A stretch of 35,884 bases of DNA, from positions 1 to 35,884 of the forward strand of contig JAPUJT010000091.1 in assembly GCA_027296055.1 (NCBI GenBank). Direction: 5' to 3'. Below are positions 13,605-21,292 of this stretch, one piece after another; the first letter of the stretch is position 1, and every line of letters begins with the position of its first letter. A program made the position numbers and the translations under genes. The notes below the pieces were generated by a model. It had not been told where the DNA came from. It searched no databases and was given only the letters and a program-made list of their open reading frames with translations. Source of the DNA: Planctomycetota bacterium (GTDB lineage: Bacteria; Planctomycetota; JAPUJT01).

Positions 13605-14033
13605 CTACGTCAGGAGCGTAGCGTCCAGAGTGATCTCCGCACCGGCGAGGGCGACCGATACGGGGCAGTTCTTCTTTGCTCCCTCGGCGTGCTCCCGGAA
13701 AGTCCCCGCATCGATTCCCGGAACCTTGCCCTCCGTGACGAGGTGGATCTTCGTGATCCGGAAATTGTCCTCGACCTTTTCCAGGGTCACCGTGGCGCGG
13801 GTGTGGACACGTTCGGGCGAGTGCCCCGCCTTCTCCAATCCCGCGGAAAAGGCCATCGAGAAGCAGCCCGCGTGAGCGGCCCCGATCAGCTCCTCGGGGT
13901 TCGTCCCCTCGCCGTCCTCGAACCGCGACCGGAAGGAGTACGGGCCATCGTAGGCCCCGCTTCCGAGCTTCATCGTGCCCTTGCCACTCTTGAGGTTGCC
14001 TTCCCAGATTGCCTCGGCGTTGCGTGTCGCCAT
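13605..14033 (-). CDS. OsmC-like peroxiredoxin
   Basis: The 142-residue OsmC/Ohr-family protein is expected to reduce organic hydroperoxides in the cytoplasm with a Cys pair. Cys57 lies in GAAHAGCFSMAFS and Cys123 in KKNCPVSVAL, the standard positions. EELIGAAHAGCFSMA is typical of the OsmC branch. The full length matches the family. It lies 48 bases downstream of the NmrA-like gene on the same strand and upstream of the CDGSH gene, so the three probably form an operon. An AAAGGA site lies ahead of the ATG. Both catalytic residues are Cys; there is no sign of Sec here. Confidence 0.92.
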   Translation of the reverse strand: MATRNAEAIWEGNLKSGKGTMKLGSGAYDGPYSFRSRFEDGEGTNPEELIGAAHAGCFSMAFSAGLEKAGHSPERVHTRATVTLEKVEDNFRITKIHLVTEGKVPGIDAGTFREHAEGAKKNCPVSVALAGAEITLDATLLT

Positions 14034-15179: not shown

Positions 15180-15224
15180 GCAGGCACCCATGGAAGTTTT
15201 CCTGTGAAAGAGGAGGGAACTTGC

Positions 15225-16178
15225 ATGCGATCACACAGACGTTGGAGCAATCGAATCAAGCTATTCGGGGTGGCCCTCGTCGTGGGCCTTCTCTGCCCGA
15301 TGGCCGTCGCACAGGAAGAAGTCCCGAAGATCTACGACGAGCAGGCCGATGCGAAGGCAGAGATCGCCCGGGCGGTGGCAAAGGCAAAGAAGGACAACAA
15401 ACGAGTCCTCATCGTGTATGGAGGCAACTGGTGCCACTGGTGTCATAAGCTCCACGATGCGTTCAAGAAGAATCGCTCGATCGCCAGGACCTTACAGTTC
15501 GAATACGAAGTCGTGCGAGTGGACATCGGGCGGTTCGACAAGAACCTCGATATTGCCGAGGGGTACGGCGCCCAGATCAAGAGCGGGGTCCCCTATCTGA
15601 CCGTCCTGGGAGGGAATGGGAAAGTCCTGACGAATCAGGAGACCGGCTCGCTGGAGAAGGACGGTCTCCACGATCCCGACCTGGTGGGAAAATTCCTCGA
15701 TAAGTGGAAGACGAAGCCCTGGGATGCGGAGGATGTTTACCAGGAGGCGTTGGCGCGGGCAAAGAAGGAGCAAAAAAGATTGCTCCTCCACCTCGGCGCC
15801 CCATGGTGAGGGTGGTGTCATCGCCTCGAGGAGTTCCTCGAGCAAGATTCGGTGAAGGCGCTTCTACAGAAGGATTACATCGATGTGAAGATCGATACCG
15901 ACCGGATGACGAACGGGAAGGAGTTGGCCCTACGTCTCCGCCCATCCGGAAAGGGCGGCATTCCGTGGATCGTGATTCTCGACCCCGAGGGTGAAGAACT
16001 GATCACCTCCGACGGTCCCAACGGGAATATCGGTTGCCCCGTCAAGCCCGAGGAGCGATCCCATTTCGTGTCCATGATCGAGAAGACGGCGAAGGAGATG
16101 TCCGAGCAGGATCTCTCTGCCTTCAAGAGTTTGCTGGATAAGTTTGGCGAAGGGATTCTGGCCAAGCGAAAGGGCTAG
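15225..16178 (+). CDS. Exported two-domain thioredoxin-like selenoprotein (in-frame UGA = Sec195)
   Basis: Read with UGA 15807-15809 as selenocysteine, this is a 317-residue protein. The start ATG has AGGAGGG 8 bases upstream. A signal peptide follows (basic start, LFGVALVVGLLC core, cut near AVA-QEE), so it acts outside the cytoplasm. Domain 1 (about 45-165) is thioredoxin-like with GNWCHWCHKL (Cys70, Cys73) and a cis-Pro in GVPYL. Domain 2 (about 175-315) has GAPW-U-GWCHRLEEF (Sec195, Cys198) and GIPWIVILDPEG with its cis-Pro. UGA replaces exactly the first, attacking residue of CxxC. After the UGA the same frame stays open for 122 codons and completes the fold, ending at TAG. UGA is a plain stop in nearby genes. 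Role: probably a highly reactive extracytoplasmic thiol/selenol oxidoreductase. If UGA were a stop, the product would be 194 residues with an unfinished second domain. Confidence 0.88.
15819..15854 (+). promoter_or_regulatory. Candidate bacterial SECIS element in the coding sequence
   Basis: The core hairpin is 15825-15842: CTCGAGG and CCTCGAG pair perfectly (7 bp, 8 if A-U closes) around the loop AGTT, with G15833 and U15834 at the tip. It begins 15 bases after the UGA. The tip G lies 24 bases beyond the end of the UGA; in E. coli fdhF the equivalent G is 20 beyond. An outer helix, CATCG (15819-15823) with CGGTG (15850-15854), may extend it across an internal loop. A GU tip at this distance is what SelB recognises in bacterial SECIS elements. 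Unlike fdhF, no bulged U is seen in the stem. Confidence 0.72.
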
Positions 16179-17550: not shown

Positions 17551-18621
17551 ATGCCCTTTGGTTCACGAAAGATCCTCAGGTGGACAGGGGCTGTCCTGTT
17601 CTCGATTTTCGCAATCGCGTCCGGTTGCGCGGGAGGTGGATCCGACGGGTCCAGCGGGCGCGCACCAGTGGGACCGGCGATCGTCGAGGTGAGCCCGGCG
17701 GTCGCTCCCCTCGCCGGAGGGATTCAGGTGGAGGTGGACACGGCTAGATTTTCGACCTCCTTTTTGATGGGCCTCCCCACCGTATTGTTCGGAGGTCAGC
17801 CGGGGACATCCCTGACGGTCCTGAGCCCGACCCGCGTCCGGTCTCTTCTTCCCGCCTCGCCGGCGGCCGGCCTGGTGGATGTGGAAGTCATCTCCCAGGA
17901 CGGGAGCGAGTCGGCAGTTCTCAGCGATGGGTTCAGCTATATAGTCGCCCCGATCGTCTCGGCGCTGAGCCCGGACATGGGGGACCCCTCCGGCGGCGAG
18001 CTGGTCACGGTCATCGGGGACAACTTCGATACGACAGGGCCGGTCACCGTCGCCTTCGGTCTGGCGAACGCGACGGGCGTGACGGTCATCGACTCCATGC
18101 GGCTGGACTGCATCACCCCGCCTGGCTCTCTCGGCCCCGTGACGGTGACGGTCACGAATCCAGACCTCCAGCAGGGCGCGCTGATGGATGCGTTCACCTA
18201 CGCGTGCGGCGGTCCCGCCGTGATCCAGCGTGAGGACTGCGTCTTCGACCTGATCAATCAGGAGCGAGGCGTGGTGGGGAAGCCAGACCTGACCCACGAT
18301 CCGGCGATCCGCCTCGTGGCTCGCGCCCACTCGGAGGACATGCGGGATCGCAACTTCTTTGATCACAGAAACCCGGACGGCGATGACCCGGACGATCGAC
18401 TTCTGGCCGCCGGGATCTCGTTCGGCGCGTGGGCGGAGATCATCCAATTCAACCTGAGCGCAGACCCCGCCCAGGCCGCGTTCGACTGGTGGATGAACTC
18501 GGCGCTGCACAGGGGGCTTATGCTGGATGAGAGCAACGTAGGCTTCACACTAACCGGGATCGGCGCATCGACCGATGGCGCCGGGACATGGTGGTTCACG
18601 GCAATGTTCGTGAGGCCGTAG
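17551..18621 (+). CDS. TIG-TIG-CAP lipoprotein, first of a tandem pair
   Basis: The 356-residue product has a lipoprotein-type signal (FAIASGC, Cys at about 28). Two IPT/TIG beta-sandwich domains follow (about 45-130 and 130-220; LSPDMGDPSGGELVTVIGDNF is typical). A C-terminal CAP (SCP/PR-1, YkwD-like) domain spans about 230-356. CAP landmarks are FDLINQER, ARAHSEDM, FFDHRNPDGD and LHRGLML. The usual AENI/GENI motif reads AEII, although the conserved Glu and the His of LHRG are kept. It is therefore probably anchored outside the cytoplasm, with TIG spacers presenting the CAP module. CAP function in bacteria is poorly known. GGAGGACTAAGG precedes the ATG. Confidence 0.88.
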   Translation: MPFGSRKILRWTGAVLFSIFAIASGCAGGGSDGSSGRAPVGPAIVEVSPAVAPLAGGIQVEVDTARFSTSFLMGLPTVLFGGQPGTSLTVLSPTRVRSLLPASPAAGLVDVEVISQDGSESAVLSDGFSYIVAPIVSALSPDMGDPSGGELVTVIGDNFDTTGPVTVAFGLANATGVTVIDSMRLDCITPPGSLGPVTVTVTNPDLQQGALMDAFTYACGGPAVIQREDCVFDLINQERGVVGKPDLTHDPAIRLVARAHSEDMRDRNFFDHRNPDGDDPDDRLLAAGISFGAWAEIIQFNLSADPAQAAFDWWMNSALHRGLMLDESNVGFTLTGIGASTDGAGTWWFTAMFVRP

Positions 18622-18721: not shown

Positions 18722-19813
18722 ATGCTCCTCAGATTTTCGTCTCTCTCCCCGGCGGTTGCCCGCTCGATCCTCGCCCTCATCACTCTCGCCCTCCTTCCGG
18801 CAGGGTGCGGGAGTTCGGGATCTGGTTCCTCCTCCTCCACCCCATCAGGTCCGCCTCAAGTCGACAGCGTCTGGCCTACGCAGGCAGCCGAGATCGGTGG
18901 GACGCCGATCACGATCCGTACAACCAATTTCAGCTCTGACTTCCTGAGGGATCTTCCGACGGTCACGTTCGGCGCCCAGCCGGCGACCGCTGTGACGGCG
19001 AGGTCGAGGAGCACGGTGCTCGTGGACGCGCCGCCGATGGCGACCGCCACTCCGGTGGATATAACGCTCACGTCCTTCGATGGCCAGGAGTCGGACACGA
19101 TGCCGTCGGTCGTCGACTATACGACGACACCAATCTTGTCGAGAATCTTCCCTGGCTCGGGCGATCCGGCCGGCGGTCTGACGGTCACGATCGAGGGAGA
19201 CAACTTCCGACGGAGCGGCCGCACGACCGTGACCTTCGGGTCGATCGACTCGCCGAGCGTCGACGTCCAGGACCGGTACACGATGACCTGCGTGACGCCC
19301 GCTTCTCCCGCGGGCGTGGTGACCGTGATGGTGACGAACCCCAACCCGCGCAACGAGCAGGGCTGGCTGACCGACGGCTTCACCTTCGCCGGCGTCGACC
19401 CGGCGGTCCTATCGATGGAAGCTCGGGTTTTCGACCTGATCAACCAGGAGAGGGCGATCGTGGGGCGGCCCCCCCTGAACCACGACCCGGACATCCGGCT
19501 CGTGTCGAGGGCCCATTCCGAAGACATGCGGGACCGCGACTTCTTCTTGCACCAGAATCCCGACGGGGATTGGCCCTGGGACCGACTCGATGCCGCGGGG
19601 ATCTCCTGGAGAGACGTGGCAGAGAACATCGCCTGGAACCAGAATGCCGGCGATCCGGCCCAGTACGTGGTGGATCAGTGGATGGCTTCCACCCAGGGCC
19701 ACCGGGAAACGCTCCTCGACTCGAGCAACATCGGCTACAGCCTTACCGGGGTCGGCGTCTCCCGCAACGCGTCCGGCCGCTGGTGGTTCACGCAGGTCTT
19801 CGTAAGACCATAG
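18722..19813 (+). CDS. TIG-TIG-CAP lipoprotein, second of a tandem pair
   Basis: This 363-residue paralogue of the preceding gene has the same layout: a signal peptide with LLPAGC, a Ser/Gly linker, two IPT/TIG domains (FPGSGDPAGGLTVTIEGDNF is typical) and a C-terminal CAP domain. CAP motifs are complete here: FDLINQERAIVG, SRAHSEDMRDRDFF, VAENIAW and TQGHRETLL. These give the His-Glu-His cavity residues of the family. The end, WWFTQVFVRP, matches WWFTAMFVRP of the first copy. AAGGAAGGAATCA precedes the ATG. It lies 100 bases after its paralogue and probably shares its promoter. Sequence divergence shows an old duplication. Confidence 0.9.
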   Translation: MLLRFSSLSPAVARSILALITLALLPAGCGSSGSGSSSSTPSGPPQVDSVWPTQAAEIGGTPITIRTTNFSSDFLRDLPTVTFGAQPATAVTARSRSTVLVDAPPMATATPVDITLTSFDGQESDTMPSVVDYTTTPILSRIFPGSGDPAGGLTVTIEGDNFRRSGRTTVTFGSIDSPSVDVQDRYTMTCVTPASPAGVVTVMVTNPNPRNEQGWLTDGFTFAGVDPAVLSMEARVFDLINQERAIVGRPPLNHDPDIRLVSRAHSEDMRDRDFFLHQNPDGDWPWDRLDAAGISWRDVAENIAWNQNAGDPAQYVVDQWMASTQGHRETLLDSSNIGYSLTGVGVSRNASGRWWFTQVFVRP

Positions 19814-19852: not shown

Positions 19853-21292
19853 CTACTTTTTCTTTGAGCGGGATTTTCGTCGAGGGGATGTGCTCTCGGC
19901 CTCACGCAGGGCGCGGATCAACTCGACCTCCTCCCCCTCCAGGATGGTTCGAAGATCGATCAGGACCCGGTCGTCCTTGAGTCGCGTGAAGACCGGCGGC
20001 GACTGCAGGCGCAGATCGCGAGCCAGTTCATGAGCGGGCCTATCTTTCGGACGCAGGGCGAGGGCGAACGTGGGAAGCTTCTCCGTCGGGAGGCTGCCCG
20101 AGCCGACCTGTGAGCGCTCCTCCACCACGGTCGGTTGCAGGTCGGGGGCCTGGGATCGGACCTCCTGGGCCAGCTTCTCCGCGCGCTTGCGGATCTCGTC
20201 CGGCTGCATCGTGATCAGTCGCAGGGCCAGATTGTTCTGGAAGACGCGATCTCCTTCCAGGAAGAGGCGCAAGGTGGCTTCGAGGGCAATCAGCGTGAGC
20301 TTGTCGACGCGGAGTGCTCGGTAGAGCGGATTGGCCATCACCGCCGAGATGACCTTCTTTTTTCCCACGATGATTCCCGCCTGGGGTCCGCCCAGGAGCT
20401 TGTCGCCGCTGAAGGTGATTACGTCGGCTCCCTCGCTCATGCTCCCCTGCACCGTCGGCTCCCCCTTCAGGCCGAACGCTTCGAGATCCACGAACGAGCC
20501 GGATCCAAGGTCGTCCATGACAGGAATGCCGTGCTTTCGTCCCAGGCGGACCAGCGACTCGACGGCGACCTCCTCCGTGAATCCCACGATCCGGTAGTTG
20601 GACGTGTGGACTCGTAGCAGAAGCCCCGTCTCGGGCCCAACGGCCTGCTCGTAGTCGGCGATCCGGGTACGGTTGGTGCTTCCGACCTCGACCAGGCGAG
20701 CGCCGCTCTGAACCATCACGTCCGGGATCCGGAACGATCCTCCGATCTCGACGAGCTGCCCTCGAGAGACGATCACCTCCTTGCCCCGGGCCAGCGTGGC
20801 GAGGACGAGCAGCGTGGCGGCCGCGTTGTTGTTGACGACCGTGGCCCCCTCCGCCTCGCAGATTTGAGAGAGGAGTTGAGATATCGGACGGACCCGATCT
20901 CCCCTCTCTCCGCTCTCCGGATCGATCTCTACGCGAGTGTAGCCCCGCGCCTCCTGCTGGAGGGCGGCGAGAGCGGCGGGCGAGAGCGGTCCCCGTCCCA
21001 GGCCGGTGTGAAGCACGATCCCGGTGCCGTTCAAGACGCGGCATACCTGGGGTCGGATTTCCTCGGTCAGGCGAGATTCGATCTGCTCGGAGAGTCGGCG
21101 GGGCGATAGGAGAGATTCGATCTTGTCGTTCCCCCCGCCCTTCGAGCGAAGCCTCTTCCGGAGATCGCCGAGGACATCCCGCACGGCCCGGACCACCCGA
21201 ACGCGGCTGTGGAATCTTATCAGGCGAGCGACTTCCGGCTCGCCGAGTGTCTGGTCCACCGACGGGATGATTCGGAGGGGAGTATTTGCCAT
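19853..21292 (-). CDS. selA: L-seryl-tRNA(Sec) selenium transferase
   Basis: The 479-residue cytoplasmic PLP enzyme converts Ser-tRNA(Sec) to Sec-tRNA(Sec) with selenophosphate from SelD. Signatures: LNGTGIVLHTGLGRGPLS near 87-104, VNNNAAATLLVL, RGQLVEIGGSFRIP, EVGSTNRT, PVMDDLGSGSFVDL and FSGDKLLGGPQAG. The PLP-binding Lys is Lys298, close to Lys295 of the E. coli enzyme. Length and N-terminal domain are normal, and no residues look damaged. The ATG lies 4 bases after the stop of the HEAT/TPR gene, so the two are co-transcribed. The usual partner selB does not follow; the next gene is convergent. Its presence supports the Sec reading of the UGA at 15807. Confidence 0.96.
   Translation of the reverse strand: MANTPLRIIPSVDQTLGEPEVARLIRFHSRVRVVRAVRDVLGDLRKRLRSKGGGNDKIESLLSPRRLSEQIESRLTEEIRPQVCRVLNGTGIVLHTGLGRGPLSPAALAALQQEARGYTRVEIDPESGERGDRVRPISQLLSQICEAEGATVVNNNAAATLLVLATLARGKEVIVSRGQLVEIGGSFRIPDVMVQSGARLVEVGSTNRTRIADYEQAVGPETGLLLRVHTSNYRIVGFTEEVAVESLVRLGRKHGIPVMDDLGSGSFVDLEAFGLKGEPTVQGSMSEGADVITFSGDKLLGGPQAGIIVGKKKVISAVMANPLYRALRVDKLTLIALEATLRLFLEGDRVFQNNLALRLITMQPDEIRKRAEKLAQEVRSQAPDLQPTVVEERSQVGSGSLPTEKLPTFALALRPKDRPAHELARDLRLQSPPVFTRLKDDRVLIDLRTILEGEEVELIRALREAESTSPRRKSRSKKK

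What the first reader, a model, noticed from the sequence alone, without database searches (positions are those of the whole stretch)
15225..16178. Double-thioredoxin selenoprotein with a U-G-W-C active site
The sequence shows an open frame broken once by UGA at 15807-15809. That UGA sits exactly where the first Cys of the second CxxC belongs (PW-UGA-GWCH, compared with NW-C-HWCH in domain 1). The next 122 codons in the same frame complete a thioredoxin fold, including its cis-Pro motif. UGA is a normal stop in the NHL, outer-membrane protein, gspE and gspF genes, so the code is not reassigned. With selA nearby, selenocysteine is the best reading. An exported tandem thioredoxin pairing a CHWC domain with a UGWC domain is an unusual layout that I cannot match to a named family, and automatic annotation would truncate it.
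Basis: partly seen in the sequence, partly recalled or inferred. Interest (0 to 1): 0.93.

Follow-up and report, generated by a model that had tools for sequence, protein, structure and literature searches.

The report
Planctomycete double-thioredoxin selenoprotein family
A planctomycete gene broken by an in-frame UGA codon is predicted to be read straight through, placing selenocysteine in the second active site of a likely exported double thioredoxin; the same codon recurs at that site in 23 other genomes of the phylum, mostly with the same RNA hairpin behind it.

Summary
In detail: 15225-16178 (+) is one frame broken once, by TGA at 15807-15809, at the first Cys of the second CxxC (residue 195 of 317). 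The selenocysteine reading is strongly supported. The genome holds selA (in the window), selB, tRNA-Sec (anticodon UCA) and a selD with its own TGA. Of 392 genomes of the phylum searched in six frames, 24 (this one included) hold 25 family genes with TGA, and in 25 of 25 it falls at residue 195. A hairpin with loop AGUU follows 22 nt later; published bacterial SECIS criteria are met by 22 of 25 TGA genes and 5 of 98 Cys loci. All 23 other TGA genomes have selB, against 16 of 29 Cys-only ones. Codons after the TGA are under purifying selection. What is new is a selenoprotein family that reaches no NCBIfam cut-off and that I could not recognise in the 2026 catalogue of 119 families; one lineage carries two Sec codons (UGPC/UPPC plus UGWC/UGYC). 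The role, an envelope disulfide reductase fed by DsbD, is inferred only.

The parts
15210..15217 (+). Shine-Dalgarno GAGGAGGG, 7 nt before the ATG
   Evidence: sequence
15225..16178 (+). tandem-thioredoxin selenoprotein gene, 317 codons plus TAG, read through one TGA
15225..15314 (+). likely signal peptide (residues 1-30), low-confidence region of the model
   Evidence: sequence by eye; pLDDT 50-61 for residues 1-30; no signal-peptide program was run
15342..15704 (+). thioredoxin domain 1 (about residues 40-160), active site CHWC at residues 70-73, cis-Pro motif GVPY
15726..16094 (+). thioredoxin domain 2 (about residues 168-290), active site U195-G-W-C198, cis-Pro motif GIPW
15807..15809 (+). 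in-frame TGA, predicted selenocysteine codon (residue 195)
15825..15842 (+). bacterial-SECIS-type hairpin CTCGAGG-AGTT-CCTCGAG, apical loop 15832-15835, 22 nt after the TGA
19853..21292 (-). selA (L-seryl-tRNA-Sec selenium transferase), part of the decoding machinery
   Evidence: PF03841 480.6 bits

Best explanation
The UGA at 15807-15809 is predicted to be decoded as selenocysteine by this genome's own SelA/SelB/tRNA-Sec machinery, likely directed by the hairpin at 15825-15842, which would give a 317-residue, likely exported protein of two thioredoxin domains with active sites CHWC and UGWC. Shown by sequence: the position of the UGA, its recurrence at the same residue in 23 other genomes of the phylum, the conserved hairpin, the complete Sec gene set, and purifying selection after the UGA in the relatives tested. 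Inferred: Sec195 is the attacking residue that reduces disulfides (or oxidised thiols) of envelope proteins by way of a mixed selenenylsulfide, Cys198 resolves it, and electrons come from the cytoplasm through the DsbD-like transporter encoded elsewhere in the genome. Domain 2 is likely the essential working site: every one of the 25 TGA genes keeps its UxxC, while 9 of the 25 have lost the CxxC pair of domain 1 and 2 have no domain 1, so domain 1 would be an accessory or binding module.
For: (1) 25 of 25 TGA-bearing family matches, in 24 of the 392 genomes searched, have TGA at residue 195. (2) Hairpin: at the register found, 88% of the 8 pairs form over 25 TGA genes against 40% over 98 Cys loci, and 25-58% in the TGA genes at the other 20 registers tried; loop AGTT in 23 of 25 against 0 of 98. 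The four criteria of the published model (PMC13188914, section 5 read) are met by 22 of 25 against 5 of 98, p 1.4e-16, 21 of the 22 at the same 22-nt spacing. Four of 8 pairs show changes on both sides (shuffled mean 1.0, reached in 0 of 500). (3) selA in the window, selB 338.5 bits (cut-off 242.25), selD 368.4 bits (cut-off 125) with its own TGA, tRNA-Sec 65.9 bits (cut-off 47), called tRNA-SeC with anticodon tca. (4) selB over the cut-off in 23 of 23 other TGA genomes against 16 of 29 Cys-only ones, p 1.7e-4. (5) dN below dS after the TGA in the five pairs tested (dS/dN 0.33/0.02, 0.15/0.03, 2.33/0.15, 1.93/0.19, 1.78/0.18; three of the pairs share members). (6) Confident two-domain model, pLDDT 92.3, pTM 0.84; nearest solved structure 3fk8 (disulphide isomerase). 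(7) DsbD-like transporter, 674 aa, in the genome.
Against: No protein, selenium-labelling or expression data exist here. Three of 25 TGA genes fail the SECIS criteria (L046 and L076 keep the AGTT loop on a broken stem; L059 has no such hairpin). Seen alone, the window's hairpin is unremarkable. The column-shuffle control on percent paired is narrow (87.5 against 84.8). A covariance model of the region also scores Cys homologues, up to 47 bits, because it carries the codons of the protein motif, so it is no independent test; it missed the hairpins of selD and L004. selA was not found in 3 of the 23 other TGA genomes (G172, G263, G331; 77, 91 and 82% complete). 16 Cys-only genomes have selB, so the machinery does not force the Sec form. 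Reductase rather than oxidase or isomerase, and the link to DsbD, rest on family knowledge alone.
Confidence: 0.88

Rival explanations
1. The UGA is a true stop, and the functional product is the 194-residue protein with domain 1 alone.
For: 23 of 203 fetched database proteins end there; domain 1 has its own CHWC.
Against: The 194-residue product ends inside domain 2, just after its strand 185-191; the codons after the TGA are under purifying selection in the five pairs tested; 9 of the 25 TGA genes have no CxxC in domain 1, so their truncated product would have no such active site; hairpin and selB association.
Confidence: 0.03
2. A pseudogene or a sequencing error: TGC or TGT turned into TGA.
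For: The genome is a fragmented draft (206 contigs, 91.69% complete, 5.56% contamination). TGC and TGA differ by one base.
Against: The same TGA in 24 genomes, and 23 database proteins that end at this residue, one of them 96% identical and from a sequence that differs from this one; no other stop in the frame; purifying selection downstream in relatives.
Confidence: 0.01
3. UGA is read as another amino acid here (Cys or Trp by reassignment, or a leaky stop).
For: UGA can be misread by near-cognate tRNAs (general knowledge).
Against: UGA ends five other genes checked in this window; the TGA sits only where Cys is the homologous residue; SECIS-type hairpin, tRNA-Sec with anticodon UCA, full sel set.
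Confidence: 0.02
4. It is a selenoprotein, but with another role: an oxidase or isomerase of protein disulfides, or a peroxide- or metalloid-reducing enzyme, rather than a disulfide reductase fed by DsbD.
For: The nearest solved relative, 3fk8, is named a disulphide isomerase; tandem thioredoxins of the PDI kind are further structural neighbours; an OsmC-like gene, a family known for thiol peroxidases (recalled), lies 1.2 kb away on the other strand; no known electron donor was seen beside it among the 9 window proteins given to Pfam.
Against: Sec lowers the reduction potential, which fits a reductase better than an oxidant (general chemistry, recalled); a DsbD-like transporter is present in the genome.
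Confidence: 0.35

Closest known systems
Cys-form tandem thioredoxins, mostly of Planctomycetota ('thioredoxin family protein' / 'DUF255 domain-containing protein')
   Same: Similar length, two thioredoxin domains with CxxC in both, 43-60% identity over 82-98% of the query in the listed full-length hits; the direct family
   Different: Cys instead of Sec at residue 195; loop AGTT in 0 of 98 loci and LEEFL in 0 of 98 (23 and 18 of 25 in TGA genes)
'Thiol:disulfide interchange protein' selenoprotein (PF13098, UxxC), Zhang 2006 and later catalogues; 'Trx-like 2' (cd02953) of the GOS survey
   Same: Trx-like fold, UxxC; PF13098 also hits this protein (56.2 bits)
   Different: Listed from Syntrophus and Geobacter in the passages seen; a tandem layout was not mentioned there; the reference sequence itself could not be fetched and compared
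Trx7/PDZ selenoprotein (NF041199)
   Same: Thioredoxin_7 fold with Sec
   Different: Sec at the second position (CxxU), PDZ domain; 25.5 bits here against a cut-off of 300
TsoB, rhodanese/DsbD fusion-like selenoprotein (NF045694)
   Same: Best NCBIfam match of domain 2 (55.3 bits)
   Different: Cut-off 805 bits; different architecture and Sec motif UxxxxU
DsbH / DUF255 (PF03190), PDB 3ira, 7tkv, 2ju5; X. fastidiosa 3fk8
   Same: Same thioredoxin subfold; 3fk8 matches domain 1 at E 1.1e-21
   Different: Not listed as selenoproteins; DsbH equivalog NF043050 53.8 bits against a cut-off of 190

Membership tests
Bacterial selenoproteins (SECIS-dependent) | In-frame UGA at a residue that is Cys in homologues | tested here: met
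Bacterial selenoproteins (SECIS-dependent) | Hairpin after the UGA meeting the published model (loop 3-9 nt, stem 4-16 bp, G in first two loop positions, 16-37 nt from UGA, <= -7.5 kcal/mol) | tested here: met
   window: loop AGTT, 7 bp, 22 nt, -10.6 kcal/mol; 22 of 25 family members, 5 of 98 Cys loci
Bacterial selenoproteins (SECIS-dependent) | selA, selB, selC (tRNA-Sec), selD in the genome | tested here: met
Bacterial selenoproteins (SECIS-dependent) | Selenium shown in the protein | not testable with these tools
   needs 75Se labelling or mass spectrometry
Tandem thioredoxin (Cys) family of Planctomycetota | Two thioredoxin domains with near full-length alignment to homologues | tested here: met
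   model
'Thiol:disulfide interchange protein' selenoprotein (PF13098 UxxC) | PF13098 domain with UxxC | tested here: met
   PF13098 56.2 bits, cut-off 27; U195-G-W-C198
'Thiol:disulfide interchange protein' selenoprotein (PF13098 UxxC) | Orthology with the reference sequence of the catalogue | not tested
Trx7/PDZ selenoprotein NF041199 | Score over the curated cut-off of 300; Sec as CxxU | tested here: not met
   25.5 bits, UxxC
TsoB NF045694 | Score over the curated cut-off of 805 | tested here: not met
   55.3 bits
DsbH NF043050 | Score over the curated cut-off of 190 | tested here: not met
   53.8 bits

The most novel reading that the evidence does not exclude
A widespread selenoprotein family of Planctomycetota that no catalogue names and that gene finders cut in half: envelope tandem thioredoxins whose second active site is UGWC, held to a near-fixed SECIS hairpin that dictates part of the protein (LEEFL). 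Sec and Cys have been exchanged several times in the family, domain 1 may lose its cysteines, and in one lineage a TlpA-like UGPC/UPPC domain precedes the UGWC/UGYC domain, making a two-selenium, two-thioredoxin relay in one chain.
Probability: 0.75. Interest if true: 0.6.

Novelty: new variant of a known kind. Interest (0 to 1): 0.52.

Why it matters
A family of redox enzymes in a widespread phylum is partly deposited as half-proteins, so its selenium dependence and probable envelope thiol chemistry are invisible in annotation. The family offers matched Sec and Cys forms, intact and cysteine-free first domains, and two-Sec fusions: a natural series for asking what Sec buys in an extracytoplasmic thioredoxin. 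It also gives a clear training set for bacterial SECIS prediction and an obvious new annotation model.

Tried and rejected
Rfam on the window: 0 matches at gathering scores. Viral contigs: 10 stretches matched a pattern, none encodes a relative. The genome-contig scan used the single pattern [GS]APWC[GSV]WC, so its 80 kept loci (of 113 relatives) are Cys forms by construction; they serve as comparison only, never as evidence of how frequent TGA is. In one search at most 5 candidates per genome were scored and the genomes were drawn from a larger group, so its counts are a sample. A covariance model of the region (R1) was rejected as a discriminating test because it scores Cys loci too; in the own genome it found this site at E 1.1e-12 and the next at 0.0086, and it did not find the hairpins of selD or of the second thioredoxin. 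Root and direction of Sec/Cys exchange: the tree needs at least 5 changes (starred branches force 3) but it is unrooted and its deepest forks are weak, so gain and loss are not told apart. Two Cys loci (L099, L100) keep much of the hairpin with ACTT in place of AGTT, which would fit loss of Sec but also plain coding of LEDFL; left open. The geometry between the two active sites could not be measured (no coordinates given).

Caveats on the comparison set: of the 98 Cys loci 18 come; one (L068) has its domain 1 motif counted in place of domain 2, whose Cys is not covered by its match; several loci are the same gene from two collections (116 different of 123 rows in the tree; 90 distinct 48-nt stretches among the 98).

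Full report
The reading frame. 15225-16178 (+) is one frame of 317 codons broken once, by TGA at 15807-15809, and ended by TAG. The start ATG has GAGGAGGG 7 nt upstream. The N-terminus looks like a signal peptide by eye; no predictor was run. The two halves are thioredoxin domains of the Thioredoxin_7 / DUF255 kind, with CHWC at 70-73 and U-G-W-C at 195-198. A model built from 20 aligned sequences, with Cys for Sec, is confident (mean pLDDT 92.3, pTM 0.84). Its best structural match is 3fk8, a Xylella disulphide isomerase, which is also the best sequence match in the PDB, to domain 1 (E 1.1e-21).

The genome. The window is one contig of a 5.26-Mb draft of 206 contigs, 91.69% complete; that it is a planctomycete is taken from the name of the 96% identical record P0002 and from the named relatives. 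The genome has selA in the window, selB (338.5 bits, cut-off 242.25), tRNA-Sec (65.9 bits, cut-off 47; ARAGORN tRNA-SeC, anticodon tca) and selD (368.4 bits, cut-off 125), whose frame itself holds one TGA at the place of the catalytic residue (...SAG-U-AGKLG...; the place is recalled). TGA is the stop of five other genes checked in the window, so the code is not reassigned.

The family. A protein search gave 1321 homologues. Of the 120 listed, 119 have 300 residues or more and carry Cys at residue 195, and one, P0002, stops at 194. This shows that the homologous residue is Cys, but a database of called ORFs cannot show UGA forms as such. A second search with the first 194 residues brought more: 23 of the 203 proteins now in hand end exactly at ...APW. 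Their DNA was not seen; the plain reading is that automatic annotation truncates the family there.

TGA in other genomes. A six-frame search that reads through stops found the family in 53 of 392 genomes of the phylum at E <= 1e-20, in 58 places, 25 of them (24 genomes, this one included) with a TGA inside. All 25 were examined at DNA level: in 25 of 25 there is a TGA at residue 195. One of them, L077, has a second TGA at the active site of its first domain; in its two sisters L074 and L076 the same is seen on translation (FWGTW-U-GPC, FWGTW-U-PPC), and there the first domain is TlpA/AhpC-TSA-like (Pfam run on L074 and L076). Of the 25 genes, 10 keep CxxC in domain 1, one has CGWS, 9 have lost the pair, 3 have the UGPC/UPPC domain, and 2 have no first domain.

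The hairpin. The 51 nt from each of the 25 TGAs align without gaps. The loop AGTT lies 22 nt after the TGA in 23 of 25, and in 0 of 98 Cys loci. At this register 88% of the 8 pairs form, against 40% in the Cys loci, and 25-58% in the TGA genes when slid by up to 10 nt. With the published model (PMC13188914, section 5) 22 of 25 TGA genes pass and 5 of 98 Cys loci, Fisher p 1.4e-16. L051 passes with a different stem and the loop GTT at 25 nt. Failures: L046 and L076 (AGTT loop on an interrupted stem) and L059 (no such hairpin). Four of the eight pairs have a change on both sides (0 of 500 shuffles reach this), but the excess in percent paired over shuffles is small, 87.5 against 84.8, because the columns hardly vary. 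RNAalifold predicts the inner six pairs on its own. Free energy against synonymous-codon shuffles: mean z -1.41 in 25 TGA genes, -0.28 in 98 Cys loci, p 3.3e-6; for the window's own gene only -0.54. The hairpin spells LEEFL in 18 of 25 TGA genes and in 0 of 98 Cys loci, where LEDWM is commonest, so the RNA seems to dictate the protein there.

Association and selection. selB passes its cut-off in 23 of 23 other TGA genomes and in 16 of 29 genomes with only other forms (Fisher p 1.7e-4; relatedness of the genomes is not corrected for). selA passes in 20 of the 23 (not found in G172, G263, G331). In the five pairs of TGA genes tested, which share some members, the 112 codons after the TGA have dN well below dS, so the downstream half is translated protein, not trailer.

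Tree. On 123 loci (25 U, 98 C; 116 distinct) the U/C label needs at least 5 changes, and well-supported branches alone force 3, against 23 on average for shuffled labels. As drawn, 21 of the 25 TGA genes fall outside the group that holds all Cys forms; four (L049, L051, L055, L059) lie among Cys forms. The root is unknown and the deepest forks are weak, so direction is open.

How it likely works. UxxC thioredoxins use the first residue to attack a disulfide and the second to resolve (general knowledge of the fold). Here that residue is predicted Sec, in a likely exported protein. The genome encodes a 674-residue DsbD-like protein with an N-terminal DsbD domain, a membrane part and a C-terminal thioredoxin domain, a plausible electron source. 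So: an envelope (seleno)thiol reductase, fed by DsbD, with domain 2 as working site. The Sec reading rests on sequence evidence; role, partner and direction of electron flow are inference.

Known or new. NCBIfam release 20.0 has no model that reaches its cut-off (14 weak matches). The 2026 catalogue of 119 prokaryotic selenoprotein families (PMC13188914; section 5 and parts 1 and 2 of 3 of section 7 read, with the whole table; the rest by passages) does not contain the word planctomycete, and I recognise no tandem thioredoxin in its table. The closest entries are 'thiol:disulfide interchange protein' PF13098 UxxC and Trx7/PDZ CxxU. The older surveys PMC1794560 and PMC2398784 (passages only) have broad classes (Trx-like 1, 2, 3 with UxxC) into which domain 2 reads of marine planctomycetes could have fallen unnoticed. 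PMC4807772 (passages and section 17) reports Sec machinery and selenoprotein candidates in two planctomycetes; its list (S9 table) could not be opened, so it may already hold a member. PMC9312934 was seen by passages. Literature searches: of an open-access library only. I found no description of this family in these, which is not proof that none exists.

Noticed in passing
L077, L074, L076 (G127, G172, G198), family code f71: Double-Sec proteins: a TlpA/AhpC-TSA-like domain with UGPC or UPPC fused to the Trx7 domain with UGWC or UGYC, in all 3 genomes of this family code among the matches; the first UGA of L077 also has a hairpin after it (-16.1 kcal/mol for 48 nt).
   Followed up: partly
L004:1411-2211 (own genome, contig C137): A second likely exported thioredoxin with an in-frame TGA in its first active site (W-U-G-P-C), a second thioredoxin-like half without CxxC, and a hairpin at a similar distance after the TGA.
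   Followed up: partly
L023 (own genome, contig C95): selD has an in-frame TGA at the catalytic site (SAG-U-AGK) with a 6-bp hairpin after it.
   Followed up: partly
L079, L080 (G370, G073): Relatives without domain 1: the U-G-W-C / U-S-W-C domain at the N-terminus followed by a long C-terminal extension.
   Followed up: no
L099, L100: Cys-form genes that keep much of the hairpin with ACTT in place of AGTT; possible relics of a lost SECIS.
   Followed up: no
window 13605-14033 (-): An OsmC-like gene (62.6 bits) 1.2 kb from the selenoprotein gene, on the other strand.
   Followed up: no
window 17551-18621 and 18722-19813 (+): Two neighbouring genes that look alike by sequence, apparently a tandem duplication of a TIG-TIG-CAP protein (Pfam run on the first only).
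   Followed up: no
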